Assembly (NCBI RefSeq): GCF_003014735.1
Contig: NZ_PYAX01000002.1
Location: forward strand, 62,001 to 126,000
Direction of reading: 5' to 3'
Length of the DNA: 64,000 bases
Source: Saccharothrix carnea
GTDB lineage: Bacteria > Actinomycetota > Actinomycetes > Mycobacteriales > Pseudonocardiaceae
This document shows, one piece after another, positions 1-64,000 of this stretch. The notes under the pieces were generated by a model. It was given only the letters and a program-made list of their open reading frames with translations, searched no databases and was not told where the DNA came from. A program made the position numbers and the translations under genes. The first letter of the stretch is position 1, and each line of letters opens with the position of its first letter.

Positions 1-7176
<7,176 letters not shown>

Positions 7177-10195: not shown

Positions 10196-10675
10196 ATGAG
10201 CGACGATCACGACATCATCGCCCGGCTGGAACGGGTCGAGGCCGAGTTGGCGCTGCGCAGGCTGGTGTCCGAGTACTGCGTGGCCGCTGACCACCGCGAC
10301 CTGGAGCTGTGGCGCGCGGTGTGGACGCCGGACGCGGTGTGGGCGACCGGCTCCGCACCAGAGCGCGTCTTCAGCGGCACGGACGCCATCTGCGCGGCGG
10401 TCCAGTGGCAGTGGCGGGCGTACCCGGTCATGCAGCACGGCACGGTCAACCACGTGGTCGACCTCGACGGCGCGGCGGAGGGCACCGCGACCGGCCGCAG
10501 CGACGTGATCGTGCACGTCCGACTGGCCGACGGCACGTGGGTGACCGGCGGCGGAACGTACCTCGACCAGTACCGCCGACACGACGGCCGGTGGCGGATC
10601 GCCCGGCGGACCGTGCACCGGCCGTTCGAGGTGGGCCCGCTGCCGAGCTGGGTGCCCGAGCCGCCGGCCGACTAG
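10196..10675 (+). CDS. SnoaL-like / NTF2-fold protein
   Basis: A 159-residue protein of the SnoaL-like NTF2 superfamily. It opens with the family pattern of an N-terminal helix followed by ELALRRLVSEYCVAADHRDLELWRAVWTPDA (split across residues 15-45). HGTVNHVVD and the final strand WRIARRTVHRP match the alpha+beta barrel. Members are small cyclases, hydratases, dehydratases or ring-modifying enzymes, or have no known chemistry. I chose ATG at 10196; an in-frame GTG lies 9 bases upstream. It stands alone after the NRPS/fkb region and could be a tailoring enzyme, but it is separated from that operon by junk, so no role is claimed. Confidence 0.8.
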   Translation: MSDDHDIIARLERVEAELALRRLVSEYCVAADHRDLELWRAVWTPDAVWATGSAPERVFSGTDAICAAVQWQWRAYPVMQHGTVNHVVDLDGAAEGTATGRSDVIVHVRLADGTWVTGGGTYLDQYRRHDGRWRIARRTVHRPFEVGPLPSWVPEPPAD

Positions 10676-10723
10676 CTGTTGCGGGTCATGACGTTGGTGA
10701 CGGCTGGTAGGGCCTGAGACGAG

Positions 10724-10790
10724 GGACGGGTCTTTCGGCGGCAGGATGAGAAGTGCGACCAACACATCCGCCGAGCAGAAAGACCCGTCC
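10724..10790. repeat. 13-bp perfect inverted repeat at the IS481 remnant
   Basis: GGACGGGTCTTTC (10724-10736) and GAAAGACCCGTCC (10778-10790) are exact reverse complements around a 41-base spacer, overlapping the start of the transposase remnant. This is probably part of the element's left-end structure. Confidence 0.5.
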
Positions 10791-11045
10791 GTGCTCCACC
10801 GTAACGCCCCGCTGTCCGTCGAAGGCCGCCACCGCCTCGTCCAACGCTGCCGCACGCGCCCCATCGCTACGTCGCGGCCGAGGTCGTGGTCCTCATCGAG
10901 CGGCTGCGGCGGGACCGCAAGTGGTCGGGCCGCCGCATCGCCGTGGAACTCGCCGCCGAGGGCACGGTCGTGTCGGTGCGTACGGTCGGCCGGCACCTGG
11001 CCGACCTCGGCCTGAACCGCCGCAGCTTCCTCGACCCCACCGGCC
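10753..11045 (+). pseudogene. IS481-family transposase N-terminal remnant
   Basis: The reading LHRNAPLSVEGRHRLVQRC, then after a one-base shift EVVVLIERLRRDRKWSGRRI and VVSVRTVGRHLADLGLNR, matches the N-terminal helix-turn-helix region of IS481 transposases. A frameshift separates the parts near 10860, and the DDE integrase core is absent. The sequence changes abruptly at about 11045 into an antisense transporter fragment, so the element is a truncated footprint. Confidence 0.7.
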
Positions 11046-52300: not shown

Positions 52301-54060
52301 TGAAGGCGGACCGGTTCGTCGCCGCCGGCAGGTCGATGACCGCGGTGAGCCAGGACGGCGCCTTCACCAGCGGCTACTACCTGCAGTACCACGGCGACAG
52401 CCAGAAGTGGGTCTTCCTGAAGTTCTCCGCCGACATCGCCGACGGCCCCACGTTGAGGTGGCACGGCGTCAGTGCGAAACAGACACCCGTCGTCAACGAC
52501 TGGGTGCACCTGACCGGTGTCTACGACGGGTCGACCAAGGAGATGCGGATCTACGTCAACGGTGAGCCGGGCAATGACGAGCGCTTCCTCTACCCGGGCA
52601 CCGAGTGGAACGCCACGGGCCGGGCGGTGGTCGGCCGGGGCAAGTTCAACGGCGCCGAGGCCGACTTCTGGCCGGGCGCGGTCGACGAGGTCCGAACCTA
52701 CAGCCGGGTGCTGTCGGCCGACGACATCAAGGGCGTGGTCAGCCAGAGCCGGGTGTCGGCGGGTTCGTGGCGGCTGGACGGGAACCTGAACGACTCCTCG
52801 GGCCGTGGCCTCACGGGCACGTGGAACGGGACGGCGGCGTACACCGAAGGGCAGAGCGAGAACTCCGACTCGGCCGACCAGGCGTTGCGGCTCACCGGGA
52901 CCAACGGTGTCGAGGCGCCGAACGCGGTCAACCCGCTGGAGAGCTACTCGGTGTCCGCGTGGGTCCGGCCGGACGCGGGCAGGGATTGCACCTGCACGAT
53001 CGTGTCGCAAGCCTTTGACACCGTCCCGGCGTTCTCGCTGTCCGCGAACCGGGACGGCAAGTGGCAGCTGTCCGCCGCCGATGCGTCCGCCGTCGCTGGC
53101 GACGTGCAGCCCGGCGTGTGGACGCAGGTCACCGGTGTCCACAACAAGCAGCGGCAGCAGCTCGAACTCCACGTCAACGGCGCGCTGGTCGCCACGGCGA
53201 AACTCACCCTGCCTCAGCACAACGACGGCAAGTTGCAAGTCGGCCAGGCCAAGTCGCGAGGGACGGCTCGCGACAGGTTCGTCGGCGCGATCGACGACGT
53301 GCAAATGCACAGCCGTGCGTTGTTCGCCGACGAGATCCGCGTGATGGCGGGGCGCGACCTGGCCCTCGTGCACAACTGGAAGCTGAACGACAACCCAGCC
53401 GACTCGATCGGCGCCCAGGGCGGCGCGTTGCTCGGAGGGGCCGGCTACGGTCCTGGCCGCGCGGGCCGGTCGATCCGGCTGGACGGCACGGATGACGCGG
53501 TCAGCGCGACCGGCGTCGACCTGCGCACCGATCAGAGTTTCACGGTGTCCTCGTGGGTGAACCTGACCAGGCCCGGCCCTTGTGAGTCGGAGTGCACCCG
53601 TGACGCGGTCAGCCTGTCCGGCGCCCGGGACGGCAAGGCGCCGGTGAAGTTCCGCCTCGGTCACCGGATCGACCAGGACCAGGCGCAGGGCAGCGGCAAG
53701 TGGATCTTCGAGTTGCCCGAGGCGAACGGGACCGTCACCAAAGCCGCGGTCTCGGTGCGGCCGAGCCAGTTCGACAACTGGGTGCTGCTCGTCGGCGTGT
53801 ACGACGCGGGCTCGGGACAGATCGACTTGTACGTCCACAGCGACGATCCGCTGAGTGAGCCCGACCAGGACACCGGCAGGCTGATCCAGCCCTGGCAGGG
53901 CGAGGGCGCGTTGCAGATCGGGCGGGCGGTGGCCGCTCCCGACGCGACGGCGTCCGGGTTCTGGCCGGGCGGCGTGGACGATGTCCGGCTCTACACCGGG
54001 ACACTGTCCACCGAGCGGCTCAAGGCACTCCGCGACTCCTACCCGGCGGTGACTTCATGA
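49369..54060 (+). CDS. Giant secreted protein with DNRLRE-like and four LamG domains
   Basis: A 1563-residue secreted protein. The signal peptide is about 1-34 (FSARLFLLLVSVFLAMSSAS). Residues about 60-270 are a beta-rich N-terminal region. About 280-460 is DNRLRE-like (YPVTVDPAYFPHAHNYWATV, SFHDTGLLSGKDILEAKFYS). About 470-670 is Ig-like, with a FAVDRTPPV-like edge. Four Laminin-G/ConA-like sandwiches follow at about 682-890, 903-1124, 1131-1326 and 1333-1557, each with the pattern SFSVSAWVRPD...WTHLTGVYD...GAIDEVQVFDRALS in parts. Such repeats bind carbohydrate or protein surfaces. Its stop overlaps the start of the RHS gene (ATGA), so both are made together; in actinomycetes LamG and RHS proteins commonly pair this way. 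It probably is the surface partner or carrier of the RHS protein, which is inference. Confidence 0.88.
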   Translation: MVRQWRARGFSARLFLLLVSVFLAMSSASSEAWAVSGGEGGAERHPVAVRQAPDESAAAVAAARQGTRVEVVDQRTATSTVYAEPDGTRTTELAATPMRFQREQAWVPLDRTLAVRADGSVASKAVAEDVVLSGGGSKPLITIVAGANELALYWPTALPEPVLSGTAATYAEVLPGIDLVMRVESGGYQQLLVVKTAEAAKNPALARVRLRVAVKGLRVTADDSGALKAVDEKGATVLSSAPSTMWDSKGRVENVGVEVAGDVLTLVPDRAFLADESTAYPVTVDPAYFPHAHNYWATVLSGDRFRDQAYNRRSADATHPDWAQVGQCWNGRGECNGIGEARAYFSFHDTGLLSGKDILEAKFYSTVMYSPNCEIRNHQLRLVHHAIGDGTTWNNKPENPNQRIEFAAPNSCNGAHGVELDIRGMLNVGGASTYYLHASDPNDQTAWRKYASAETRIVIKWNRVPDLPQDLRTDPPLPQPCQWCAGIPHISNQDIRLIATLSDPDHERVRPKWRIRPEGRAEETSDGDWVPSGVPVSRAVPLADKDGLRINWWLHAEDDTPASSGASHGPVFAVDRTPVTVAPTVESRIHTQDNNWHGGVGVSDVFTFGSNGVGDIDHYLHGWQDPPTTRADATALGGPAFATIAPSADGPQTLFVQSVDRAGNKSPARTHGVYVRAGDGALGQWSFEGNAKDNAYLGDRHGELSGGASYTSGAVGTALLLDGANGSAMTARNVTRTDTSFSVSAWARPDVMPDRPMGVVSQDNDQTGYSGWLLHYRDDGQGPKWAFWLPGGDTANPGAGVVTEGSAPAHQPQQGRWTHLTGVFDRNAAETRLYADGVLIGKKTTPPGWVPWQSGGRVAVGRLQWAGSQSHPWSGAIDEVQVFDRALSDAEVSAKVSRDDVRTGHLKFDDEPAPGGQSNTKARNEVAGASDGALVNGATFVDNGDLGRAVRFDGTDDQVVTGGPAVRTDRSFSISAWVKADRFVAAGRSMTAVSQDGAFTSGYYLQYHGDSQKWVFLKFSADIADGPTLRWHGVSAKQTPVVNDWVHLTGVYDGSTKEMRIYVNGEPGNDERFLYPGTEWNATGRAVVGRGKFNGAEADFWPGAVDEVRTYSRVLSADDIKGVVSQSRVSAGSWRLDGNLNDSSGRGLTGTWNGTAAYTEGQSENSDSADQALRLTGTNGVEAPNAVNPLESYSVSAWVRPDAGRDCTCTIVSQAFDTVPAFSLSANRDGKWQLSAADASAVAGDVQPGVWTQVTGVHNKQRQQLELHVNGALVATAKLTLPQHNDGKLQVGQAKSRGTARDRFVGAIDDVQMHSRALFADEIRVMAGRDLALVHNWKLNDNPADSIGAQGGALLGGAGYGPGRAGRSIRLDGTDDAVSATGVDLRTDQSFTVSSWVNLTRPGPCESECTRDAVSLSGARDGKAPVKFRLGHRIDQDQAQGSGKWIFELPEANGTVTKAAVSVRPSQFDNWVLLVGVYDAGSGQIDLYVHSDDPLSEPDQDTGRLIQPWQGEGALQIGRAVAAPDATASGFWPGGVDDVRLYTGTLSTERLKALRDSYPAVTS

Positions 54061-57000
54061 GACGACAGTGGACCTTCCGCGGCTTGGTGATCGCCCTGGT
54101 CGCACCGCTGGTGACCGTGACGGTCACCTCGTCCGCCGCCCAGGCCGCGAGCGGACCGTCTGTCCCGCTGCCGGAGACCGGCTCGGTGGCGGTCAGCGAG
54201 CAGACCCGCGTTCCGCGCGGCGAGGACGAGGCCTCACGCCGGTCGCTGAGCGGTGACCAGCAGGAAGTCGGGCAAACCGCCGGTTCCGGGAAGCCGACCG
54301 CAACGTCCCTGTCACCCTCGTCGACCTGGGACGTCTCGCTGAACACCGGTGACTTCACCTGGTCGTACCCGCTGAGGGTGCCACCGGCACCAGGTGGGCT
54401 GGAACCGTCGCTGGCCCTGTCATACCGGTCGTCCGCCGTGGACGGGCACACCAGTGAGACCAACAACCAGCCGTCGTGGATCGGGGACGGCTGGGACCTG
54501 TGGCCGGGGTACATCGAGCGCACCTACGGGACCTGCGCCGACGACGACTCGAAGACCGGCGACCTGTGCTGGCGCAGCGACAACGCCACAGCCGCGTACG
54601 ACGGAGGCGGCGGAACGCTGATCCACAACGGTACGTCGTGGCGCGCGAAGAGTGACGACGGCTCGCGCATCGAGCGGTTCACCGGCCTGGGCAACGGTGA
54701 CGACAACGGTGAGCACTGGCGCATCACAGCGACCGACGGCACCCAGTACTGGTTCGGGTCCGCGACCGATGCCCACTCGACCTGGACCGTTCCGGTGTAC
54801 GGCGACGACGCGGGGGAGCCGTGCAACCGGCCCGGCTCGTTCGGTTCCTCGCACTGCGTGCAGGCCTGGCGGTGGAACCTGGACAAGATCGTCGACCGCA
54901 ACGGCAACGTGATCCGGTACTACTACACGACCGAGACGAACTCCTACGGGATGAACGAGAAGGACAGCGCGGTGTCCTACGTCCGCGGTGGCTCGTTGCA
55001 CCACATCGACTACGGGCTCCACGAGTCGGTCGCGGGCCCGGCGACCGGGCGCGTCGACTTCACCCTCGCCGACCGGTGCGTCCGCGACAGCGACTGTGCG
55101 CCGGCCCAGCGCCGGAACTGGCCGGATACGCCGCTGAAGCTGTCCTGCACCGGGGCGACCTGCACCGAGCACTCACCGACGTTCTGGACCACGAAACGGC
55201 TGGCGGGTGTCACCACGACGGTCTGGCGCGATTCGTCCTACGAGCCGGTCGACCGCTGGACGCTCGACCAGCAGTTCCCCGGCACCGGGGACATCGGCAC
55301 CGAGCAGCGCGAATCCGCGGCGCTCTGGCTGAAGGGCATCACGCACACCGGTCTGGTCGCCGGTTCGGCGGACCTGCCACCGGTCACCTTCGAAGGGACG
55401 TTGTACCCCAACCGCGTCGACGGGGACAACGACGGCTACGCGCCGCTGAACCGCTACCGGATCACCGGCATCATCTCCGAAACCGGTGGGGTCACCTCGA
55501 TCGACTACCAAGCACCGGACTGCAAGGCAGGTCAGTCGATGCCCGCCGCCCCGGAGGCCAACACGATGCGGTGCTACCCGGTCCGCTGGGCACCGCCGGG
55601 CCACGAACCGCGCACCGACTACTTCCACAAGTACGTGGTGTCATCGGTGATCCGAACCGACATGCTGGCGAGCAGCGCGGCACACGTGACCCGGTACGAG
55701 TACCTGGACGGCGCGGCGTGGCACTGGAACATGTCCGAGTTCACGAAGGACGACAAGAAGACCTGGAACGACTTCCGCGGCTTCGGACGCGTCAGGACCC
55801 GCACCGGATCGGTCGACGATCCCGGCGGCAGCCCCCGGACCATGTCCGAGCAACGCTTCTACCGCGGCATGCACAACGACCGGCTGCCCAACGGCGGCAG
55901 GCGATCGGTGCGGGTGTCCGACTCGGTGAACGACGGCCAGAGCGCCCGGGACGACCACGACTGGTTGAGCGGCTTCGCTTTCGAGAACACGACGTTCGAG
56001 AGCGAAGCGCCGTCGACGGCGCCCGCACCACCGGTGGTGAGCAGGACGGTCAGCCACCCGATGTGGAAGGGGCCCACGGCCAGCCGCGGCGAGTTCCACG
56101 CGTACATGGTGCGCCCCGAGGTCGAACGCCGGCTCGTCACCCTGAAGTCGGGTGGGTTCCGCGAGACCAGGACCGTGACCCGGTACGACGACGACGTCGC
56201 CCACGGCTTGCCGACCACCGTGGACGACTTCGGCGACGTCACCACGGCAGAGGATGACCGTTGCGTGCGGAACACGTACGCGCCCGACACCACGACGTGG
56301 CAGCTCGACCTCCGCAGCCGGGTCGAGACGGTGTCCGTCAACTGCGGAACCACCCCCACCTTCCCCCGCGATGCCGTCTCAGACCTCAAGCTCTCCTACG
56401 ACAGCAGGGGGAACCCGGCCCGGGTGGACGTCGCCGGCGAACGCCCGGCGGCCGGGCCGGTGTACGTCACCACCAAGACCGTGCTGAGCGACAAGCACGG
56501 CCGGACTGTCGAGACCACCGACGCGCTGGGCAACGTGGACAGGAGCGCCTACGCACCAGCCGAAGGCGGGCCGGTCACCGAGGTGACCCACACCGGGCCG
56601 ACCGGGCTCGTCACGAGAACCGCGTACGAGCCCGCGTCGGGCAAGCCCGTCAAGGTCACGGATTCCAACAACAGGGTGACGGAAACCGCATACGACCCGT
56701 TGGGGCGCACGACCCAGGTGTGGCTGCCCAACCGGCCCAGGTCGTCCAACCCCGAGGGCAGCGTGAAGTTCGGCTACCGGATCGCGCGGGACAAGCCCGT
56801 GGTGGTCACCACCGGCAAGGTGGGACCGAACGGCGTCTTCGTCACCAGCAACGAGGTCTACGACGGGCTCCTGCGACCCCGGCAGACCCAGAAACCGGGA
56901 GTGGGGATCCGCCGCGAGCCGGGCCGACCCGAAGTCCCGACGGACGACGGGCGGCTGATCACCGACACCAGGTACGACTCGCACGGCCGGGTGTACAAGG

Positions 57001-59837
57001 AGACGCAACCGTACTTCAACGCCGGTGCCGTGGACACCACCCTGTGGCTCGCGGCTGACGCCGAGGTGCCCGGACTGACCAGGACCAGGTACGACGGTGC
57101 CGGGCGGGAGACGGAGTCGATCCACCAGTCCGGCGCGTTCGACCGGTGGAGGAAGCTCACGAGTTACGACGGTGACCGGGTGCACGTCACGCCACCGGCA
57201 GGCGGCACAGCGACCACCGCGATCACCGACGCCCTCGGTCGGACCACAGAGCTGCGGACGTACCGCGGTGGTGAACCCGAAGGGGACTTCGACGCTACCC
57301 GGTACGAGTACACGAAGGCCGGTGACCTCGCCGAGGTGACGGCCCCGGACGGAGCCGTCTGGCGTTACGAGCACGACCTGCGTCGACGTCAGGTCCGGGC
57401 GGAGGATCCGGATTCGGGTACGCGGACGATGACCTACGACGACGCCGGTCGGCTGACCTCGACCAAGGACGCGCTCAACAGGGTGCTCTTCCACGTGCAC
57501 GACGCCCTCGGCCGCAAGACCGCGCTGCACGAGGACTCCCGGACGGGCAAGAAGCTCGCGGAGTGGACGTACGACACCGCCAACTCCGGCAAGGGGTTGC
57601 CGGCGTCGACCACCAGGTACGTGGACGGAAACGCCTACACGACGGCCGTGGACAGCTACACGGCCTTGAACAAGCCGCTGTACGCGTCGATCACCATCCC
57701 CTCCTCCGAAGGTGCGCTCGCCGGGAAGTACGACTTCAACTTCCAGTACGGCAGGGACGGCAGCCTCACCAACGAGACCTACCCGAGAGTCGTGGCGGCA
57801 CAGGTCGGCGAGCAGACGGTCACCTACAGCCTCGACGACTGGGGCAGGGCGAGTTCGACGAGGACCGGTGCGGGCGCCCTGCTGGTCGCCGGCACGACCT
57901 ACACCCGTTACGGCGAGGTCCAGCGCATCGAACAGGGCGCGGGCGGTACGCGGGCGTGGCAGTCGTTCTACTACGAGACGAACACCAGGCGGCACAGCCG
58001 AACCGTCGTGGACGCGGAACTGCCGAAGCCGATGCAGTCCGACGTGCACTACACCTACGACGACGCGGGCAACATCACCTCGATGGCCGACCTGACCAGG
58101 GACGCGCCGGCGGACGTGCAGTGCTTCCGCTACGACTCCCTACGCCGGTTGACCGAGGCGTGGACCGCGGCGACGACCGACTGGTGGGAAGGGGACGGCG
58201 CGCGCAACGGAGGCTGTACCGCCGAGCCGGTCGTGGCCGATGGCGCTGCGCCGTACTGGCACTCCTATCGGCACGGCGTCGGCGGCAACAGAGTGGAGGA
58301 GTCCCGGCGCACGCGAACCACAACGGACAAGCGCACGTACAACTACCCCGACGCGAACCAGCCACAGCCGCACACCGTCCGATCGGTGACCAGCGCGACC
58401 GCGACTGAGACCTACGAGTACAACGCGGCAGGGGAGACCACGCGCCGCACGAAGGCCGGCGTCGGCCAGCTGCTCGGCTGGGACCGGGAAGGGCGCCTCG
58501 CCTCGGTGACCGAAAACGGCAAGAGCACGTCGTTCATCTACACGGCCGACGGTGCGCGGTTGCTGCGCAAGGACCCGTCCGCGACCACCCTGTACCTCGG
58601 CAAGCAGGAGATCCGACATCCTGGGGACGGGTCCAAGCCTACCGTCACCCGGTACTACACCCATGGTGCGGCGACCATCGCCATGCACGACGGCACCACC
58701 CTGCTGTACCTGGGCGCAGACCACCACGGCACCGCACAGGTCGCGATGGACACCGCCAACCTGTCGGTGACGCGGCGACGCCAGACACCTTATGGCGCCC
58801 CCCGTGGCACAGCGGTCTCGTGGCCGGGAGAGCGCGGCTTCGTCGGCGGGACGAAGGATCCCTCGACGGGGCTGACCCACATCGGGGCCCGCGGGTACGA
58901 CGCCGACCTGGGCAGGTTCCTGTCCGTCGACCCGGTGATGAACCCGCAGGACTCGCAACAGATGAACGGATTCGCCTACAGCAACAACAACCCCACCACC
59001 TTCTCCGATCCCACCGGTTTGTGGTGCGACGGCTGCGACACGCCGGACAACCCCGACTCGTGCTACGGCAACAACCCGGGTCCGCAATGCGCCGGTGGAC
59101 CGGTGGACCACAAGCCCGGTGGCCGCCATGGCCCTCCTGCCGCCGGCAACAACGGTGGCGGCGGCAACAGCGGGGGAGGCGGCAGCACAAGCCGCTCGGG
59201 CTGCGGTGGACGTGGCGGCTGCGGGAAGAGCAGCGCGACGCCACCCAGGCATTGTCCGCCGCCGAGGACAGCCGCCGACTGCGCCAGGGTCGCCAAGACC
59301 CTCGGATCCGGGTGGGCGTCGGCGGCACTCCTGGCCAAGCAGAACCCGCCCAAGCTGAAGGGCAAGGTCCCCACCACCTGGGTCTGCGGTGGAGTGCTGG
59401 CCGCATTGGTGCTCGCCGCGGGCCTTGAGGCGTGCGTCGGCCACAACGAGTACGGGACGATGTGGTCCACCACGGGGAAGTTGGGCATGGGTGCCGGCGT
59501 TTCCTACGGCCTTTCCTTCAAGGTGAGCCTGGAGGATCCGCCGGGCTCCCCGACCGGAGGCGGTCCCGCCGCCGAGTCGGACAACTGGTTCGCCACCCTG
59601 GGGCCGGTGGACGTCGACGGGAGTTCGATCTCGAGCAGCGTCGCCGATGGGCCGGAATTCAGAGGGCAGAAGAACCTGCACGCGCGGATCCCGCTGGTCG
59701 TGGCGGGCGGGGTGAGCAAATCACTGTCCGGATACATCTCCGTGACGCCTTCCATCTGGGCGCAGGTCGATCCGGACCAGGTCCTGCACGACTTCCGGAC
59801 TTCCGAGGCGGACCTGATCAAGGAGTTCGGCGGCTGA
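54057..59837 (+). CDS. Secreted RHS/YD-repeat protein with SpvB-like N-terminus and unknown C-terminal tail
   Basis: A 1926-residue protein from ATG 54057. Signal peptide about 1-32 (GLVIALVAPLVTVTVTSSAA). An SpvB/TcdB-like start at about 85-160 (WDVSLNTGDFTWSYPLRVPP, LSYRSSAVDGHTSE) is followed by a long YD-repeat shell (about 690-1600, many YDxxGR units such as TYDDAGRLTSTKDALNRV). The RHS core end GARGYDADLGRFLSVDP is at about 1611-1627. After NNPTTFSDPTGL the tail (about 1650-1926) is different. It has a Cys/Gly-rich linker (GGGGNSGGGGSTSRSGCGG), a KxPPKLKGK segment, a hydrophobic stretch (WVCGGVLAALVLAAGLEACV) and a final 130 residues of beta-type sequence (MGAGVSYGLSFKVSLEDP, SKSLSGYISVTPSIWAQVD). 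RHS shells enclose a variable C-terminal effector; this tail matches no toxin family I know. No small immunity-like gene follows on the same strand. Confidence 0.9.
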   Translation: MRRQWTFRGLVIALVAPLVTVTVTSSAAQAASGPSVPLPETGSVAVSEQTRVPRGEDEASRRSLSGDQQEVGQTAGSGKPTATSLSPSSTWDVSLNTGDFTWSYPLRVPPAPGGLEPSLALSYRSSAVDGHTSETNNQPSWIGDGWDLWPGYIERTYGTCADDDSKTGDLCWRSDNATAAYDGGGGTLIHNGTSWRAKSDDGSRIERFTGLGNGDDNGEHWRITATDGTQYWFGSATDAHSTWTVPVYGDDAGEPCNRPGSFGSSHCVQAWRWNLDKIVDRNGNVIRYYYTTETNSYGMNEKDSAVSYVRGGSLHHIDYGLHESVAGPATGRVDFTLADRCVRDSDCAPAQRRNWPDTPLKLSCTGATCTEHSPTFWTTKRLAGVTTTVWRDSSYEPVDRWTLDQQFPGTGDIGTEQRESAALWLKGITHTGLVAGSADLPPVTFEGTLYPNRVDGDNDGYAPLNRYRITGIISETGGVTSIDYQAPDCKAGQSMPAAPEANTMRCYPVRWAPPGHEPRTDYFHKYVVSSVIRTDMLASSAAHVTRYEYLDGAAWHWNMSEFTKDDKKTWNDFRGFGRVRTRTGSVDDPGGSPRTMSEQRFYRGMHNDRLPNGGRRSVRVSDSVNDGQSARDDHDWLSGFAFENTTFESEAPSTAPAPPVVSRTVSHPMWKGPTASRGEFHAYMVRPEVERRLVTLKSGGFRETRTVTRYDDDVAHGLPTTVDDFGDVTTAEDDRCVRNTYAPDTTTWQLDLRSRVETVSVNCGTTPTFPRDAVSDLKLSYDSRGNPARVDVAGERPAAGPVYVTTKTVLSDKHGRTVETTDALGNVDRSAYAPAEGGPVTEVTHTGPTGLVTRTAYEPASGKPVKVTDSNNRVTETAYDPLGRTTQVWLPNRPRSSNPEGSVKFGYRIARDKPVVVTTGKVGPNGVFVTSNEVYDGLLRPRQTQKPGVGIRREPGRPEVPTDDGRLITDTRYDSHGRVYKETQPYFNAGAVDTTLWLAADAEVPGLTRTRYDGAGRETESIHQSGAFDRWRKLTSYDGDRVHVTPPAGGTATTAITDALGRTTELRTYRGGEPEGDFDATRYEYTKAGDLAEVTAPDGAVWRYEHDLRRRQVRAEDPDSGTRTMTYDDAGRLTSTKDALNRVLFHVHDALGRKTALHEDSRTGKKLAEWTYDTANSGKGLPASTTRYVDGNAYTTAVDSYTALNKPLYASITIPSSEGALAGKYDFNFQYGRDGSLTNETYPRVVAAQVGEQTVTYSLDDWGRASSTRTGAGALLVAGTTYTRYGEVQRIEQGAGGTRAWQSFYYETNTRRHSRTVVDAELPKPMQSDVHYTYDDAGNITSMADLTRDAPADVQCFRYDSLRRLTEAWTAATTDWWEGDGARNGGCTAEPVVADGAAPYWHSYRHGVGGNRVEESRRTRTTTDKRTYNYPDANQPQPHTVRSVTSATATETYEYNAAGETTRRTKAGVGQLLGWDREGRLASVTENGKSTSFIYTADGARLLRKDPSATTLYLGKQEIRHPGDGSKPTVTRYYTHGAATIAMHDGTTLLYLGADHHGTAQVAMDTANLSVTRRRQTPYGAPRGTAVSWPGERGFVGGTKDPSTGLTHIGARGYDADLGRFLSVDPVMNPQDSQQMNGFAYSNNNPTTFSDPTGLWCDGCDTPDNPDSCYGNNPGPQCAGGPVDHKPGGRHGPPAAGNNGGGGNSGGGGSTSRSGCGGRGGCGKSSATPPRHCPPPRTAADCARVAKTLGSGWASAALLAKQNPPKLKGKVPTTWVCGGVLAALVLAAGLEACVGHNEYGTMWSTTGKLGMGAGVSYGLSFKVSLEDPPGSPTGGGPAAESDNWFATLGPVDVDGSSISSSVADGPEFRGQKNLHARIPLVVAGGVSKSLSGYISVTPSIWAQVDPDQVLHDFRTSEADLIKEFGG

Positions 59838-59868
59838 CCGGACTTCCGCACCGAGGCTGCTGAGCTGC

Positions 59869-59905
59869 GGCGATCCTGCCCTTGCGTCTTCAGGCCAGGA
59901 TCGCC
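59869..59905 (+). terminator. 10-bp hairpin after the RHS gene
   Basis: GGCGATCCTG and CAGGATCGCC are exact complements around 17 bases, 32 bases past the RHS stop. It may end the LamG-RHS transcript. No T tract. Confidence 0.5.
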
Positions 59906-60002
59906 AGGTGTGGCGTTGCAACTGCTCGGCGAGGTCGCGACGCGATTCGCTTGAGCAAATACGTTCGTGTCGTTTCGGCCGGATCGGGCTTAGCTTCGGG
60001 CG

Positions 60003-60557
60003 GTGGCGAACGAACTGACGATTCCGGCCCTGCCCTGTCCTTCCATCGACGAGATCGCGTCGTTCTACGAGATGCTCGGCTTCGAGGTGACCTATCGGCA
60101 GACGCGACCGAACCCGTACCTGGCGGTGCGGCGAGAAGACATCAACCTGCACTTCTTCGGCCTGGACGACTACGACCCGGCGCAGTCCTACAGCACGTGC
60201 ATCGTCGTCGTGCCGGACATCCACGCGTTGTTCGAGGAGTTCGCGGCGGCCATGCGCAAGACGCACGGGAAGCTGCTCATCTCCGGCATCCCGCGGATGA
60301 CCCGACCCCGGCTGCGCAACGACCGCTACACCGGATTCGTGGTCATCGACCTGGGTGGCAACTGGATCCGGATCACCAGGGAGCAGGCGGAACCCGAGGC
60401 CACGACCCGGTTGGCCAACCGATCTGGCCGTCGACACGGGCCGCAGGCAGTTGCACCGTGCCTTTGGCGTCGGATCCGGATGCGTTCAAGTCGCGGATGG
60501 CCATGCTCGTATCAACGTGGATGCCGTCGGCGATCAGGGCTGGACCAGAGGTGTTGA
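60003..60557 (+). CDS. VOC (glyoxalase/bleomycin-resistance) superfamily protein with altered C-terminus
   Basis: GTG 60003 opens a VOC fold: IPALPCPSIDEIASFYEMLG, then FEVTYRQTRPNPYLAVRRED and INLHFFGLDDYDPAQSYSTC. The end WIRITREQAEPEATT falls at about residue 125-140, where VOC proteins stop or have a short helix. The rest of the 184-residue frame (after about 60415) is antisense to the convergent beta-helix gene and looks like read-through into foreign sequence. VOC proteins bind a metal with two His/Glu pairs and act as lyases, dioxygenases or drug-binding resistance proteins; I cannot assign one. It is not obviously an immunity partner for the RHS protein, although it is the next gene downstream. 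Confidence 0.65.
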   Translation: MANELTIPALPCPSIDEIASFYEMLGFEVTYRQTRPNPYLAVRREDINLHFFGLDDYDPAQSYSTCIVVVPDIHALFEEFAAAMRKTHGKLLISGIPRMTRPRLRNDRYTGFVVIDLGGNWIRITREQAEPEATTRLANRSGRRHGPQAVAPCLWRRIRMRSSRGWPCSYQRGCRRRSGLDQRC

Positions 60558-61386
60558 CGACCTTTCCGCCGCTCCACTGGAGTTGTCCACCGACCCGTGC
60601 GTTCACGAGCCGCACCGTGCCGAGGTCACCCGAGCCTGCCGCCTGCACGTCAATGAGGCTCAGGTTGTTGCCGACGCGGATCGAGTCGGCCAGCACGGCG
60701 GGGCCCGTGGTGTTGATGGTTCTGGTGTCGGAGCATTCGAGTTGGCCGCCGATCCGTGCGTTGACCAGCCGGGCGGCACCGATTGTTCCTGCGCCCGAGG
60801 CGTGTGTCCGTCGCAGGAATACGTCGGCTTCGACATGGAGGCGGTCGGCGAGCACGGCCGCTCCACCTGTGTTGGTGATCTCGGCGTCGCTGAGGTCGAG
60901 TTGACCGCCGATATGGGCGAGGATGAGCCTGATCGTGCCCTTGTCGCCGTCCCAGCGGGCGCGGACCCGTTCGAGAATCAGCTCTCCGGTGATCCGTAGG
61001 CCGTCGGCGTGCAGGGCTGTGGTCCTGCTGCCGCGCAAGTTCAGGCGCGGCAGCACCGCGTACTCCGCGGTGATCGGTTCTGTGATCACACACCCGAGCA
61101 ACTCGACACCGGCCGCAGCGGTGACGTGGTCCAGGTCGAGTCTGTCCACGATCCGCGCCCCGGACACGCGCACGCCGCGAGGGTCGAGCTCCCCATGACG
61201 CCCGAGGAGCAGGTCCCGAATCACATCGGCCCTGATCACGTGAGCGGGGTCGGTCATCTCGACGAGATCTTCGACGGTGAGCGCGCTGCACGCGTACTCG
61301 GCACCCTGCACGACGGCGGTGACAAGCAGGCGTTCCTGCGGAGTCGGATCCGGACACGCCAGTGCACCGTTATGGGAGATCGTCAC
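60373..61386 (-). CDS. Repeat-rich (beta-helix-like) protein, truncated at its C-terminus
   Basis: A 337-residue frame from GTG 61386, which overlaps the stop of the upstream gene by 4 bases. The first 90 residues include LTVEDLVEMTDPAHVIRADV. From about 110 on, a repeating unit of about 40 residues appears (AHIGGQLDLSDAEITNTGGA, VNARIGGQLECSDTRTINTT, VNARVGGQLQWSGGKVVNTS), each with GGQL and GPALxAD, which fits a beta-helix related to pentapeptide-repeat proteins. Similar proteins in actinomycetes are much longer and end in membrane segments. Here the frame ends in a junction near 60420 shared with the VOC gene, so the C-terminal part is lost. It is the last gene of the ABC-3C-like transcription unit. 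Confidence 0.7.
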   Translation of the reverse strand: MTISHNGALACPDPTPQERLLVTAVVQGAEYACSALTVEDLVEMTDPAHVIRADVIRDLLLGRHGELDPRGVRVSGARIVDRLDLDHVTAAAGVELLGCVITEPITAEYAVLPRLNLRGSRTTALHADGLRITGELILERVRARWDGDKGTIRLILAHIGGQLDLSDAEITNTGGAAVLADRLHVEADVFLRRTHASGAGTIGAARLVNARIGGQLECSDTRTINTTGPAVLADSIRVGNNLSLIDVQAAGSGDLGTVRLVNARVGGQLQWSGGKVVNTSGPALIADGIHVDTSMAIRDLNASGSDAKGTVQLPAARVDGQIGWPTGSWPRVPPAPW

Positions 61387-61754
61387 GTTGTGTTCGCTGC
61401 TTGGGGTGGGATGGGAGTCTTGCGCGGACCTGGAGGAGGAAGCGTCATTCCGACGCCCTCCATCAACTCACGGGCGATGTCGACGAACTCCGGTACAGCG
61501 CTGCGTGCGCGCGCCATGAAGTCACTTTCGTGATCGTGAACCTGAGTGATCGCCAGATACAACGCCCTTGTTCCCACTTGGTGTTCGAGCGAGTTCAGAC
61601 TGTTGAGTGCGTCGTCGACCAGGCGAGCCTCACGTGCGTCGACGGGCTTCGGCGCCTCCCGAAGTCGCGGTTGGTCGGGACTGTGCTTTCGTCGTTGATC
61701 GTCCAGGGATCTGATGGTGTGCTCCCCGGATCCGCTCTCGGAAGCGTTGGCCAC
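61383..61754 (-). CDS. Unknown 123-residue protein in the ABC-3C-like unit
   Basis: Starts at GTG 61754 with GGAGG 5 bases upstream; longer in-frame readings lack a ribosome site. It is hydrophilic. The N-terminal 50 residues are disordered-looking (ESGSGEHTIRSLDDQRRKHS), then helical segments follow (AREARLVDDALNSLNSLEHQ, ITQVHDHESDFMARARSAVP), ending in a proline-rich tail. No family recognised. It lies 79 bases after the DUF3732 ATPase gene and its stop overlaps the beta-helix gene (GTGA), so it is made together with that protein and probably on the same transcript as the ATPase. Confidence 0.6.
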   Translation of the reverse strand: MANASESGSGEHTIRSLDDQRRKHSPDQPRLREAPKPVDAREARLVDDALNSLNSLEHQVGTRALYLAITQVHDHESDFMARARSAVPEFVDIARELMEGVGMTLPPPGPRKTPIPPQAANTT

Positions 61755-61833
61755 GGTGACCTCCTGGTGGACGTTATGTTCATGGATGACCGGGTAGTGG
61801 TGGCAGGGGTGTTGTCTTGGCTTCCGTTGGCGA

Positions 61834-63780
61834 TCACGCGTTGATCCAGTCATGCGGTACCAGTGCACCTTGGCCTTGTCGCCAGCGTTGTGTGACCGCG
61901 GTGCTGAAGACCTCGTGTTCGAGGTCGGCGTGTTCCATAACAATCACCTGGAAGGCACCGCCGAGGCTGGTGATGGTGTCGGCGATGACCTGGTAGGCGC
62001 GCAGCAGGGAGATCCTGTCGGACTCGCGTGCGGGTTCCAGCCCGGCGCCTTTGTAGTCGGCGGGGAAGTACACCTGTGAGGGTTGGTCGAGGATGAGCAG
62101 CCGCGGCACGGGTCGGTCGTGTTCGGTGAACCATTCGTGCAGGCTCAGCAGCGTGGCCAAGTGGTAGCCGAGCCAGTTCTCGCCGCCGCCCATCTCGTTG
62201 AGAGGCACGGGGCCGGCGGTGGTGTCGGCCACGACGCTGAGGCGGCGCAGGTCCAGACGCACGGGTACCTGGGAGTGTTCCAGTTGCAGCGCGCGGGCCT
62301 TGGCGGAGATCTTCTGGTTGATCAGCGAGAGGCTGCTGTTCACGCGATCGGCTTGGACGTCATCGCCGAGAGTGTTTTCCAGCTCTTCGATGCGTGCCTG
62401 CAGCTCATTGCGCTGGTCCGCGATACGCGGCGCGGCCGTGAATCGGCTGGTGGTTTCGAGGAAGAGGCTGATCCGGCCCTTGACCGAGGCGGCGCGGAGG
62501 GTGCTGTCGCGGAAGCGTGAGGCGACGCGAATGCCTGCTTCGAGGGCTTCGCGCTCGTCGCGGTTGGTGTTCAGCGCCAGGCGTAGTCCGCGCTGCGTTT
62601 CCTCCTCCTGAGCGATCAGCGCTTGGACTTGGGAGGTGTCGTCGTTGACGAACACCACGTTGGCGTCGAGGTGTTCGAGGTCGGCGCGCAGGGCGGAGAC
62701 GGCCTCGTTGACGCTGGAGACGCCGTTGCCGCACACGGGGCACTGGTCGGTGGAGGTCTCGTCCTGGATGCGTAACAGGTTGAGCGAGGTGAGCCGCTCG
62801 TGCTGGTCCAGCGCGTGGGTAAGGAAGTCGCCACGTTCGTTCAGCGATTGCCTCAGGTCCGTCAGCCGTGCTCGTGAGCGCTGGTAGTCGGCGCGTAGTT
62901 GTTCTCGCTGTTGTTCGAGGCGTACGAGCGGGTCGTCGGTGTCCGCTGGCGTGTCGGGCACACCGGGAAGCGGGGCGCGTGTGGCGTCGGTGAGCAGTCG
63001 GAAGGCGTCCTCCAGCGTGAGGTCGTCCACCGGTTGTTGGGGGAGCAGTGATGTTTCGATCGCTTCCCTGACCAAGGCGCGTGCCTGTCCCGGTGCGGGT
63101 GCGGCGGCTTCCTGTTGGGCCAGGGCGCGTTCGTGGTTGCGCAGGTCGGCTCGTAGTTGGCGCAGTTGGGCGCGCAGAACGGCTTGCTCGGCGTCGACGG
63201 CGCCGAGGAAGTAGGGGAAGACGTCGCGGATGGCCTGGGTGTGGTGTTCGCGGCCTTGGGAATGGAAGAGCAGGTCGGGGTTGGCTACCTCGTTCTGGGC
63301 TTGGGCGCAGAAGAACAGGGCGTGCCGGATCGAGGGGGACATTGTGTTGCCCCTGGTGGTGGGCAGGCGCACCGTGCGGTTGATGCCGCAAAAGTCGGCG
63401 AGGATGCCGCGGGCCGCGTCCACGGGGAAAGTGAAGGACATCTCGTCGCGCCCGAGCGGCTCGGCACCCGGCTGTTGGAAGACCAGGCACAGCCTGGGTG
63501 CCGGTGTCGTGCCGCTGGACGGTGCAGGGCGGGCGACGAACAACTGTCGCTCGCCGCTAACGATTTGGATGGCGAACACGGCCACGTGGTCGCGCACGAC
63601 GCCAGCCCCGACCGGGTAGTCGGTACTGGCCATGCAGTAGTCGGTGATGGTCCAGATCGAGGTCTTGCCGGTGCGGGAGTCACCGGTGACGATGTTGAGG
63701 GCGCCCAGTTCGAAGTCCAGTGTGCGCACCTGGCCGACCTGGTGGCCGTACACGGTCAGTGCTTTGATCTGCCACGTCAC
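61834..63780 (-). CDS. SMC/Rad50-like ATPase with DUF3732 domain (ABC-3C ATPase)
   Basis: A 648-residue cytoplasmic ATPase from GTG 63780, overlapping the upstream stop by 4 bases. The N-terminus has a strand-rich lead and Walker A GDSRTGKTS (about 33-41). A coiled-coil region at about 190-500 is split by a zinc-hook-like CPVCG (about 355). The C-terminal half has the ABC signature-like LNEMGGGENW, Walker B RLLILDQPSQV and switch histidine in VIVMEHAD. Length and the DQPSQVYFP motif are those of DUF3732 proteins. This ATPase type belongs to the ABC-three-component (ABC-3C) conflict systems, where a middle component links it to an effector. The gene directly upstream is the end of such a middle component. 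It likely senses invading nucleic acid; that role is family-level knowledge, not shown here. Confidence 0.87.
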   Translation of the reverse strand: MTWQIKALTVYGHQVGQVRTLDFELGALNIVTGDSRTGKTSIWTITDYCMASTDYPVGAGVVRDHVAVFAIQIVSGERQLFVARPAPSSGTTPAPRLCLVFQQPGAEPLGRDEMSFTFPVDAARGILADFCGINRTVRLPTTRGNTMSPSIRHALFFCAQAQNEVANPDLLFHSQGREHHTQAIRDVFPYFLGAVDAEQAVLRAQLRQLRADLRNHERALAQQEAAAPAPGQARALVREAIETSLLPQQPVDDLTLEDAFRLLTDATRAPLPGVPDTPADTDDPLVRLEQQREQLRADYQRSRARLTDLRQSLNERGDFLTHALDQHERLTSLNLLRIQDETSTDQCPVCGNGVSSVNEAVSALRADLEHLDANVVFVNDDTSQVQALIAQEEETQRGLRLALNTNRDEREALEAGIRVASRFRDSTLRAASVKGRISLFLETTSRFTAAPRIADQRNELQARIEELENTLGDDVQADRVNSSLSLINQKISAKARALQLEHSQVPVRLDLRRLSVVADTTAGPVPLNEMGGGENWLGYHLATLLSLHEWFTEHDRPVPRLLILDQPSQVYFPADYKGAGLEPARESDRISLLRAYQVIADTITSLGGAFQVIVMEHADLEHEVFSTAVTQRWRQGQGALVPHDWINA

Positions 63781-64000
63781 GGGCGTACTCCGAGCAGGGT
63801 GAGGGCTGTGGCGGTGGTGCCCGCGGTGGGCAGCCACCGGCCCAGCATGTGAGCGGCTTTCTGGATCGCGACGGTCTCCGGGGACGAGCCGGTGATGCTC
63901 GCGGGGATCGAGCGCCCGGTCAGACTCAACGCCGAGGACTCGAGTGTCAGCACCCCGGTCTGCAGCGCGAACAGCAATCCCGGGCGCACCACGTCGGTGA
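63777..64000 (-). CDS. ABC-3C middle component, C-terminal part (N-terminus off the window)
   Basis: The last 74 codons of a gene entering from the right edge: VRPGLLFALQTGVLTLESSA, then SSPETVAIQKAAHMLGRWLP and TAGTTATALTLLGVRP, stop. The KAAxxLGRWxxxAGT...LGVRP ending is characteristic of ABC-three-component middle components, which precede a DUF3732 ATPase gene. Its TGA overlaps the ATPase GTG by 4 bases. The effector component, usually next to it, should lie just outside the window. Confidence 0.78.
   Translation of the reverse strand, partial: TDVVRPGLLFALQTGVLTLESSALSLTGRSIPASITGSSPETVAIQKAAHMLGRWLPTAGTTATALTLLGVRP

What the first reader, a model, noticed from the sequence alone, without database searches (positions are those of the whole stretch)
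60373..64000. ABC-three-component-like conflict locus with two extra coupled genes
A middle-component C-terminus, a DUF3732 SMC-like ATPase (Walker A, CPVCG zinc hook, signature, Walker B) and then a 123-residue unknown and a repeat-rich beta-helix protein follow on one strand; three of four junctions are 4-base overlaps or tight spacing. Known ABC-3C loci have ATPase, middle component and effector. The trailing pair is not a standard part that I know. The helical 123-residue protein plus a beta-helix (DNA-mimic-like pentapeptide relatives exist) could be a regulator, effector or immunity addition. This is the best candidate for a new system in the window.
Basis: partly seen in the sequence, partly recalled or inferred. 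Interest (0 to 1): 0.75.

Follow-up and report, generated by a model that had tools for sequence, protein, structure and literature searches.

The report
Lamassu phage-defence operon with broken neighbours
This is an ordinary three-gene bacterial anti-phage system of a known kind (Lamassu); the two "extra" genes after it look like a hitch-hiking fragment, one of them cut short, rather than parts of a new system.

Summary
The genes described are real. Extending the contig shows a complete Lamassu/ABC-3C operon: LmuA (CTD7 plus a Cap4-like region), LmuC (MC3) and LmuB (DUF3732 ATPase with zinc hook and Walker-B E-to-Q), joined by 4-bp overlaps. The trailing pair is not a conserved part. DNA conserved with the closest independent relative (G083, LmuB 77%) ends at the LmuB stop codon. 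Within the fetched flanks, none of the 19 other LmuB loci found in 397 genomes of the order carries either gene. In the genus, 3 of 5 LmuB genomes lack the 123-residue gene, and two genomes have relatives of it but no LmuB. The other carrier, G484, shares the whole block at 99% DNA identity: one recent transfer. The beta-helix gene belongs to a common family (matches in 107 of 150 genomes). Here it lacks the family's usual C-terminal membrane tail and is fused to a likewise truncated VOC gene. In G484 it is cut elsewhere, while Lamassu stays intact. The 123-residue protein remains a rare, real, unexplained small family.

The parts
63777..64000 (-). LmuC / ABC-3C middle component MC3, C-terminal part (whole gene 63777-64265 in window-extended coordinates)
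   Evidence: PF20131 MC3 81.2 bits, cut-off 23.2; PADLOC LmuC weak, 21.8 bits
61834..63780 (-). LmuB, DUF3732 Rad50/SMC-like ATPase, 648 aa; Walker A at G33-S41, zinc hook C347-P-V-C350, Walker B D565-Q566
   Evidence: PF12532 178 bits; PADLOC LmuB PDLC03859 376.5 bits; G33, S35, G38, K39, C347, C350, D565, Q566 in 16 of 16 aligned LmuB, T37 in 15 of 16; PDB relative 9hqu_A E 7.8e-63
61383..61754 (-). 123-residue ORF (P0001): own Shine-Dalgarno-like site, predicted single long helix 40-101; rare small family; not judged part of Lamassu
   Evidence: no Pfam, PADLOC or NCBIfam match at E 0.05
60419..61386 (-). 5' part (about 322 codons) of a beta-helix gene of a common family; C-terminal membrane tail missing
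   Evidence: 159-nt direct repeats at 60575-60941
60373..60418 (-). last ~15 codons and stop of the beta-helix ORF, supplied by antisense DNA of the VOC gene
   Evidence: VOC homology to 6 of 7 fetched genus relatives ends at 60418, to the seventh at 60400
60003..60418 (+). truncated VOC / bleomycin-binding-like gene: about 138 codons kept of 192-198 in the 7 relatives fetched
   Evidence: NCBIfam ble_BLMT 48.4 bits, below its cut-off 210

Best explanation
The locus is a complete Lamassu (ABC-3C) anti-phage/anti-plasmid operon, lmuA-lmuC-lmuB. LmuB (Rad50/SMC-like, zinc hook, probably slow in ATP hydrolysis) would sense aberrant DNA such as ends or hairpins. LmuC would join LmuB to LmuA. LmuA, with its Cap4-like nuclease region, would cut DNA once activated, stopping the infected cell. 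The downstream 123-aa gene and the beta-helix gene start are a fragment of other DNA that travelled with the operon in one recent transfer of about 7 kb. The beta-helix gene is broken at different places in the two genomes. Shown here: gene content, conserved residues, cassette boundary, shared block, truncations. Inferred from published work on other Lamassu systems: sensing, activation and cell death. Inferred here: that the trailing pair has no role in Lamassu.
For: Families: LmuA, LmuC and LmuB by Pfam and PADLOC. LmuA residues E43, D46, D47, Q60, K62 (counted from its Met) are invariant in 17 of 17 aligned LmuA; LmuB G33, S35, G38, K39, C347, C350 and D565-Q566 in 16 of 16 aligned LmuB. 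PDB relatives of LmuA (C-terminal part) and LmuB. Boundary: DNA conserved with G083 runs 61834-65600, with G338 to 61840, with G204 to 61838, so it stops at or within a few bases of the LmuB stop codon. 0 of 19 other LmuB loci have P0001 or P0002 within the fetched flanks. G484 shares 7,031 bp at 98.98% although the VOC gene differs by 18% in DNA. Beta-helix: 17 of 20 fetched relatives end in a '...LAxL..A(G/A)Y..L.R' membrane tail and one more (L084) in a diverged version, by my reading of the listed C-termini; the window copy has none.
Against: P0001 has a good ribosome-binding site, and its family is under purifying selection where it can be measured (P0009 v P0010, pN 0.094, pS 0.217), so it is a real gene and could be working here. 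Its ORF is intact in both block carriers, while the next gene is broken in both. The genes lie on one strand with close spacing, so co-transcription is likely. The Cap4 Pfam model is below its cut-off on LmuA (20.7 v 26.2 bits). The absence of P0001 elsewhere is bounded: G484's copy (98%) was not returned by the genome-contig scan, so that scan does not see every genome. No experiment was possible.
Confidence: 0.86

Rival explanations
1. The 123-aa protein is a lineage-specific accessory of this Lamassu, for example a helical regulator or inhibitor that binds LmuB coiled coils, and only the beta-helix gene is junk.
For: P0001 is intact in both genomes with the block while the beta-helix gene is cut in both. 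AlphaFold gives one long helix 40-101, mean pLDDT 75 but pTM 0.35.
Against: Absent from the closest independent relatives (G083, G338, G204) and from 3 of 5 LmuB genomes of the genus; relatives occur in two genomes without LmuB. The two carriers are one transfer event; 2 synonymous and 2 non-synonymous changes in P0001 carry no signal.
Confidence: 0.07
2. The 123-aa and beta-helix genes were a two-gene module of their own (a 4-bp-overlap pair), perhaps an envelope or conflict module, now dead here because its second gene is truncated.
For: 4-bp GTGA overlap between them; beta-helix relatives carry a membrane tail; relatives of P0001 sit near transposase-like genes in G310 and G480 and, in G310, near conflict-type genes (by eye).
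Against: No convincing P0001-like ORF near 20 beta-helix relatives: best tblastn E 0.013 over 18 residues, and none among the profile hits listed to E 1.5. No P0002 match (E under 1e-3) near the P0001 relatives of G310 and G480.
Confidence: 0.15
3. The VOC/beta-helix junction at 60418 is an assembly error and the real genome has intact genes on both sides.
For: A second VOC 5' fragment, 95.9% over 145 bp, lies at the very end of contig C17, so VOC is a repeat that could mislead an assembler. The junction lies at a short palindrome-like stretch.
Against: The window's VOC copy differs from the C17 copy in the 145 bp compared. The beta-helix gene is also broken in G484, a single-contig genome.
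Confidence: 0.1

Closest known systems
Lamassu / ABC-3C (DdmABC superfamily), Cap4-like nuclease type
   Same: lmuA-lmuC-lmuB gene order, DUF3732 LmuB of about 650 aa with CPxCG hook and Walker-B E-to-Q, MC between effector and ATPase, effector with an ABC-3C C-terminal domain (review PMC10586767, passages, one section)
   Different: Only in what follows: a 123-aa gene and a truncated beta-helix gene, not seen at the 19 other Lamassu loci of the order. The effector's nuclease region is diverged from the Pfam Cap4 model.
Pentapeptide-repeat / right-handed beta-helix proteins (MfpA, Qnr, AlbG, HetL)
   Same: Predicted beta-helix; Foldseek's best hits are beta solenoids and pentapeptide proteins
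   Different: All hits weak: best E 0.01, none of 389 at E 0.001 or better; no Pfam family for P0002; full-length relatives carry a C-terminal membrane tail
VOC / bleomycin-binding-like proteins
   Same: ble_BLMT and Ble-MBL similarity of the neighbouring gene
   Different: Far below the curated cut-offs; the window copy is truncated

Membership tests
Lamassu / ABC-3C | SMC/Rad50-like LmuB ATPase with Walker A, B and (often) zinc hook | tested here: met
   PF12532 178 bits, PADLOC LmuB 376.5 bits, key residues conserved in 16 aligned sequences
Lamassu / ABC-3C | Walker-B glutamate replaced by glutamine (general in LmuB per PMC10586767, section read) | tested here: met
   D565-Q566 in 16 of 16 aligned LmuB
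Lamassu / ABC-3C | Small middle component between effector and ATPase genes | tested here: met
   MC3 81.2 bits; 4-bp overlaps on both sides
Lamassu / ABC-3C | Effector LmuA with ABC-3C C-terminal domain | tested here: met
   CTD7 170.9 bits, cut-off 27.6; PADLOC LmuA 207.3 bits; PDB 9hqu_C 7.8e-11 over the C-terminal part
Lamassu / ABC-3C | N-terminal effector domain = Cap4 nuclease | tested here: inconclusive
   PF14130 20.7 bits, below 26.2; D...Q-x-K residues invariant in 17 of 17
Lamassu / ABC-3C | Restricts phage or plasmid, depending on all three genes | not testable with these tools
   needs an experiment
New system = Lamassu + 123-aa + beta-helix | The pair follows LmuB in independent relatives | tested here: not met
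   0 of 19 order loci within the fetched flanks; neither gene in the gene list of S. hiroshimensis L142; only in G484, same 99% block
New system = Lamassu + 123-aa + beta-helix | Both extra genes intact | tested here: not met
   beta-helix gene truncated here and in G484
Pentapeptide-repeat proteins | Pfam pentapeptide model over its cut-off | tested here: not met
   P0002: none; full-length relative P0011: Pentapeptide_3 22.4 bits, cut-off 27

The most novel reading that the evidence does not exclude
The 123-aa protein, one long helix with loose tails, is a newly recruited Lamassu regulator in one transferred lineage, kept intact while the gene behind it decays; its relatives in G310 and G480 would then serve other defence genes.
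Probability: 0.06. Interest if true: 0.5.

Novelty: new member of a known kind. Interest (0 to 1): 0.15.

Why it matters
It removes a candidate 'new system' and shows why: an operon-like tail with a 4-bp overlap can be a hitch-hiking fragment. It adds an MC3/CTD7 Lamassu, complete and recently transferred between two species of one genus, to the known set. If the 123-aa protein did regulate Lamassu, it would be an accessory protein to test against the activation models; the evidence here does not favour that.

Tried and rejected
New four- or five-gene system: rejected, see the cassette boundary and the relatives. Beta-helix as DNA-mimic effector or immunity protein: rejected for this copy, since it is a truncated member of a common family; fold matches to MfpA/Qnr-like proteins are weak. 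P0001 relatives in genome contigs, viral contigs, plasmids, phages: none confirmed; these tools warn that the window's own genome and very near ones may be left out, and G484's copy was indeed not returned. A class-wide search of 394 genomes gave, besides the own genome, 40 genomes with weak partial hits (best E 0.0023). Two that rose with a profile (L119, L128) read as composition-biased frames and were dismissed by eye; the other weak hits were not examined one by one. The weak hit in G486 (L141, 35% over 78 aa) lies in a 477-aa ORF and was not counted as a relative. Searching the family with the longer G310 relative (P0009) gave 4 of 200 genomes: own, G310, G869 (its N-terminal 71 residues only, 54%) and G429 (E 8e-4); the last two were not followed. 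AlbA_2 and NACHT genes as extra Lamassu parts: no match in the fetched flanks of the 19 other LmuB loci. RNA families at 59000-64000: none. Papers: no paper in the held library has both 'Lamassu' and 'pentapeptide repeat'. DUF3732 gave one paper (listing only). Searches gave listings of unrelated papers. Two Lamassu papers cited by a review (2024 and 2025) are not held.

Limits: some of the 19 loci are short or partial. L062 is a 5.3-kb contig; L054 has 691 bp left after LmuB; LmuB matches in L061-L064 are split or partial. For G487 only 1.5-kb flanks were seen (L149). The simple gene caller uses codon-position G+C and can miss or mis-frame genes; names such as transposase, integrase, SIR2 or TIR given to its ORFs are by eye, with no family search. 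The 7 VOC loci fetched are the closest (73-95% identity) of the 13 other genomes with a match. In one search my automatic choice of the beta-helix ORF was wrong for several loci; one search replaced it. One search printed 13 of 20 for its two motifs together; the 17 plus 1 of 20 that I cite is my reading of its listed C-termini. Of the remaining two, L069 is cut by a run of N and L083 looks frame-shifted. The P0002 model is the best of five; the others had mean pLDDT 63.5, 27.7, 26.2 and 25.0. In G484's beta-helix comparison, 94% over 115 residues is tblastn, while 108 codons are in frame.
Full report
What is there. The window lies at G000:C2:62001-126000 in an 8.9-Mb genome of 40 contigs. Reading on to the right (L002) gives the missing front of the operon. 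In window-extended coordinates, all on the minus strand: lmuA 64262-65470, lmuC 63777-64265, lmuB 61834-63780. Pfam and PADLOC place all three: CTD7 170.9 bits and PADLOC LmuA 207.3; MC3 81.2 bits with a weak PADLOC LmuC (21.8); DUF3732 178 bits and PADLOC LmuB 376.5. The Cap4 nuclease model reaches only 20.7 bits on LmuA, under its cut-off of 26.2. Even so, E43, D46, D47, Q60 and K62 are invariant in 17 of 17 aligned LmuA proteins (numbering from its Met, one less than in the call). LmuB keeps G33, S35, G38, K39, both hook cysteines and D-Q in Walker B in 16 of 16 aligned proteins. A review, of which I read passages and one section, describes just this build: effector LmuA, middle component LmuC and SMC-like LmuB of about 650 residues with CPxCG and a Walker-B E-to-Q change (PMC10586767). 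Solved structures of relatives exist for LmuA and LmuB; none was found for the middle component by sequence.

How it most likely works. By the reviews, Lamassu senses unusual DNA (hairpins, DNA ends) through the SMC-like subunit and then activates its effector, harming the infected cell (PMC10586767; PMC12904381, passages). For this locus the parts are shown; the steps are inferred. That LmuA is held inactive in the complex and assembles on release is recalled from recent structural work that I could not open.

Junctions. lmuA/lmuC, lmuC/lmuB and 123-aa/beta-helix are 4-bp overlaps. Between lmuB and the 123-aa gene lie 79 bp, with AGGAGG before its GTG. The 123-aa gene has lower third-position G+C (0.67) than lmuB (0.83).

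Where the cassette ends. With G083 (same genus, LmuB 77%) conserved DNA runs from 61834 to 65600: it ends on the last base of the lmuB stop codon. With G338 and G204 it ends at 61840 and 61838. What follows lmuB differs in each of these. LmuB occurs in 20 of 397 genomes of the order. I fetched the surroundings of all 19 besides the own genome; none shows P0001 (best E 0.30) or P0002 (no match under E 1e-3) within those stretches, some of which are short. In S. hiroshimensis, the one locus from the genome-contig scan, an integrase-like gene (by eye) follows on the other strand.

The 123-aa protein. It has no Pfam, PADLOC or NCBIfam match at E 0.05; PHROGs gave one hit at E 0.043, taken as noise. 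It was found only in the own genome among 249 genomes of the order, and no relative was confirmed in genome contigs, viral, plasmid or phage records. Searching the genus with a loose limit brought three relatives: G484 98%, G310 38%, G480 32%; further hits had E 0.001 or worse. Set against LmuB in the same 25 genomes: both in 2 (G000, G484), LmuB only in 3 (G083, G482, G487), P0001 family only in 2 (G310, G480), neither in 18. The G310 and G480 relatives read as longer proteins of about 190 residues and lie near transposase-like genes; in G310 a SIR2-like multidomain gene is close by (by eye). They differ by pN 0.094 and pS 0.217, so the family is truly coding. AlphaFold without relatives gives a single helix, residues 40-101.

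G484. It carries 7,031 bp at 98.98% identity, window-extended 61061-68090: most of the AlbA_2 gene, Lamassu, the 123-aa gene and the first 108 codons of the beta-helix gene. Its VOC gene is only 82% identical in DNA. So the block moved recently, and its two carriers count as one event. Changes within it (synonymous/non-synonymous): lmuA 3/2, lmuC 1/0, lmuB 4/3, 123-aa 2/2, beta-helix start 1/2. These are too few to measure selection.

The beta-helix gene. Matches to P0002 at E 1e-5 or better occur in 107 of 150 genomes of the family. Of 20 relatives fetched, 17 end in a membrane tail of one type and one more in a diverged version, by my reading; one is cut by N and one looks frame-shifted. The window copy has no such tail. 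Its likeness to relatives stops near residue 322, and 6 of 7 VOC relatives stop matching at the base where that point lies, 60418; the seventh stops at 60400. All 7 VOC relatives fetched keep a 192-198-residue protein whose last part is missing here. So two convergent genes were each cut and fused. In G484 the beta-helix gene is cut instead after codon 108, next to a transposase-like gene (by eye), and the rest is not found in the 43 kb compared. Lamassu is intact in both genomes. That is the clearest evidence that the beta-helix gene is not needed with it. Alone, the fragment is predicted as a beta-helix (best of five models: mean pLDDT 75, pTM 0.76; three of the other four were poor), with weak solenoid matches.

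Judgement. Lamassu identity is secure. The extra pair as a Lamassu part is unlikely. The 123-aa gene deserves a line in a notebook, not a claim.

Noticed in passing
right of the window, L002:10724-14053 (+): NNH7-NACHT gene (PF22738 212.5 bits), a second likely defence gene about 3.3 kb from lmuA: a defence island.
   Followed up: partly
right of the window, L002:8901-10202 (-): AlbA_2/Schlafen-type gene (PF04326 39.5 bits), most of which belongs to the block shared with G484; the two copies differ by a gap and have different C-termini.
   Followed up: partly
end of contig C17 (L107:6645-6789) v window 59946-60090: A second 5' fragment of the VOC gene, 95.9% over 145 bp, at the very end of a contig; no further part of that copy was found in the own genome.
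   Followed up: partly
L101 (G482:C39) and G484: In G482 another Lamassu (LmuB 51%) lies about 5 kb from the VOC gene, and in G484 lmuA lies about 13-14 kb from it; the VOC gene may mark a region where defence genes gather.
   Followed up: no
L046, 71 bp after lmuB: In G083 an ORF with an FLSYRR-like start (TIR/SEFIR by eye, no search run) follows lmuB on the same strand.
   Followed up: no
L139:9094-13233 and 4669-5967 (G310): Near the P0001 relative: a SIR2-like multidomain gene and a TIR/SEFIR-like gene (by eye, no family search run).
   Followed up: no
window 54057-59837 (+): 1926-residue YD-repeat/RHS-like protein just left of the VOC gene (by eye).
   Followed up: no
window 10671-10882: About 214 bp at 93% identity to L048:10662-10875 in G204, possibly a mobile-element remnant.
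   Followed up: no
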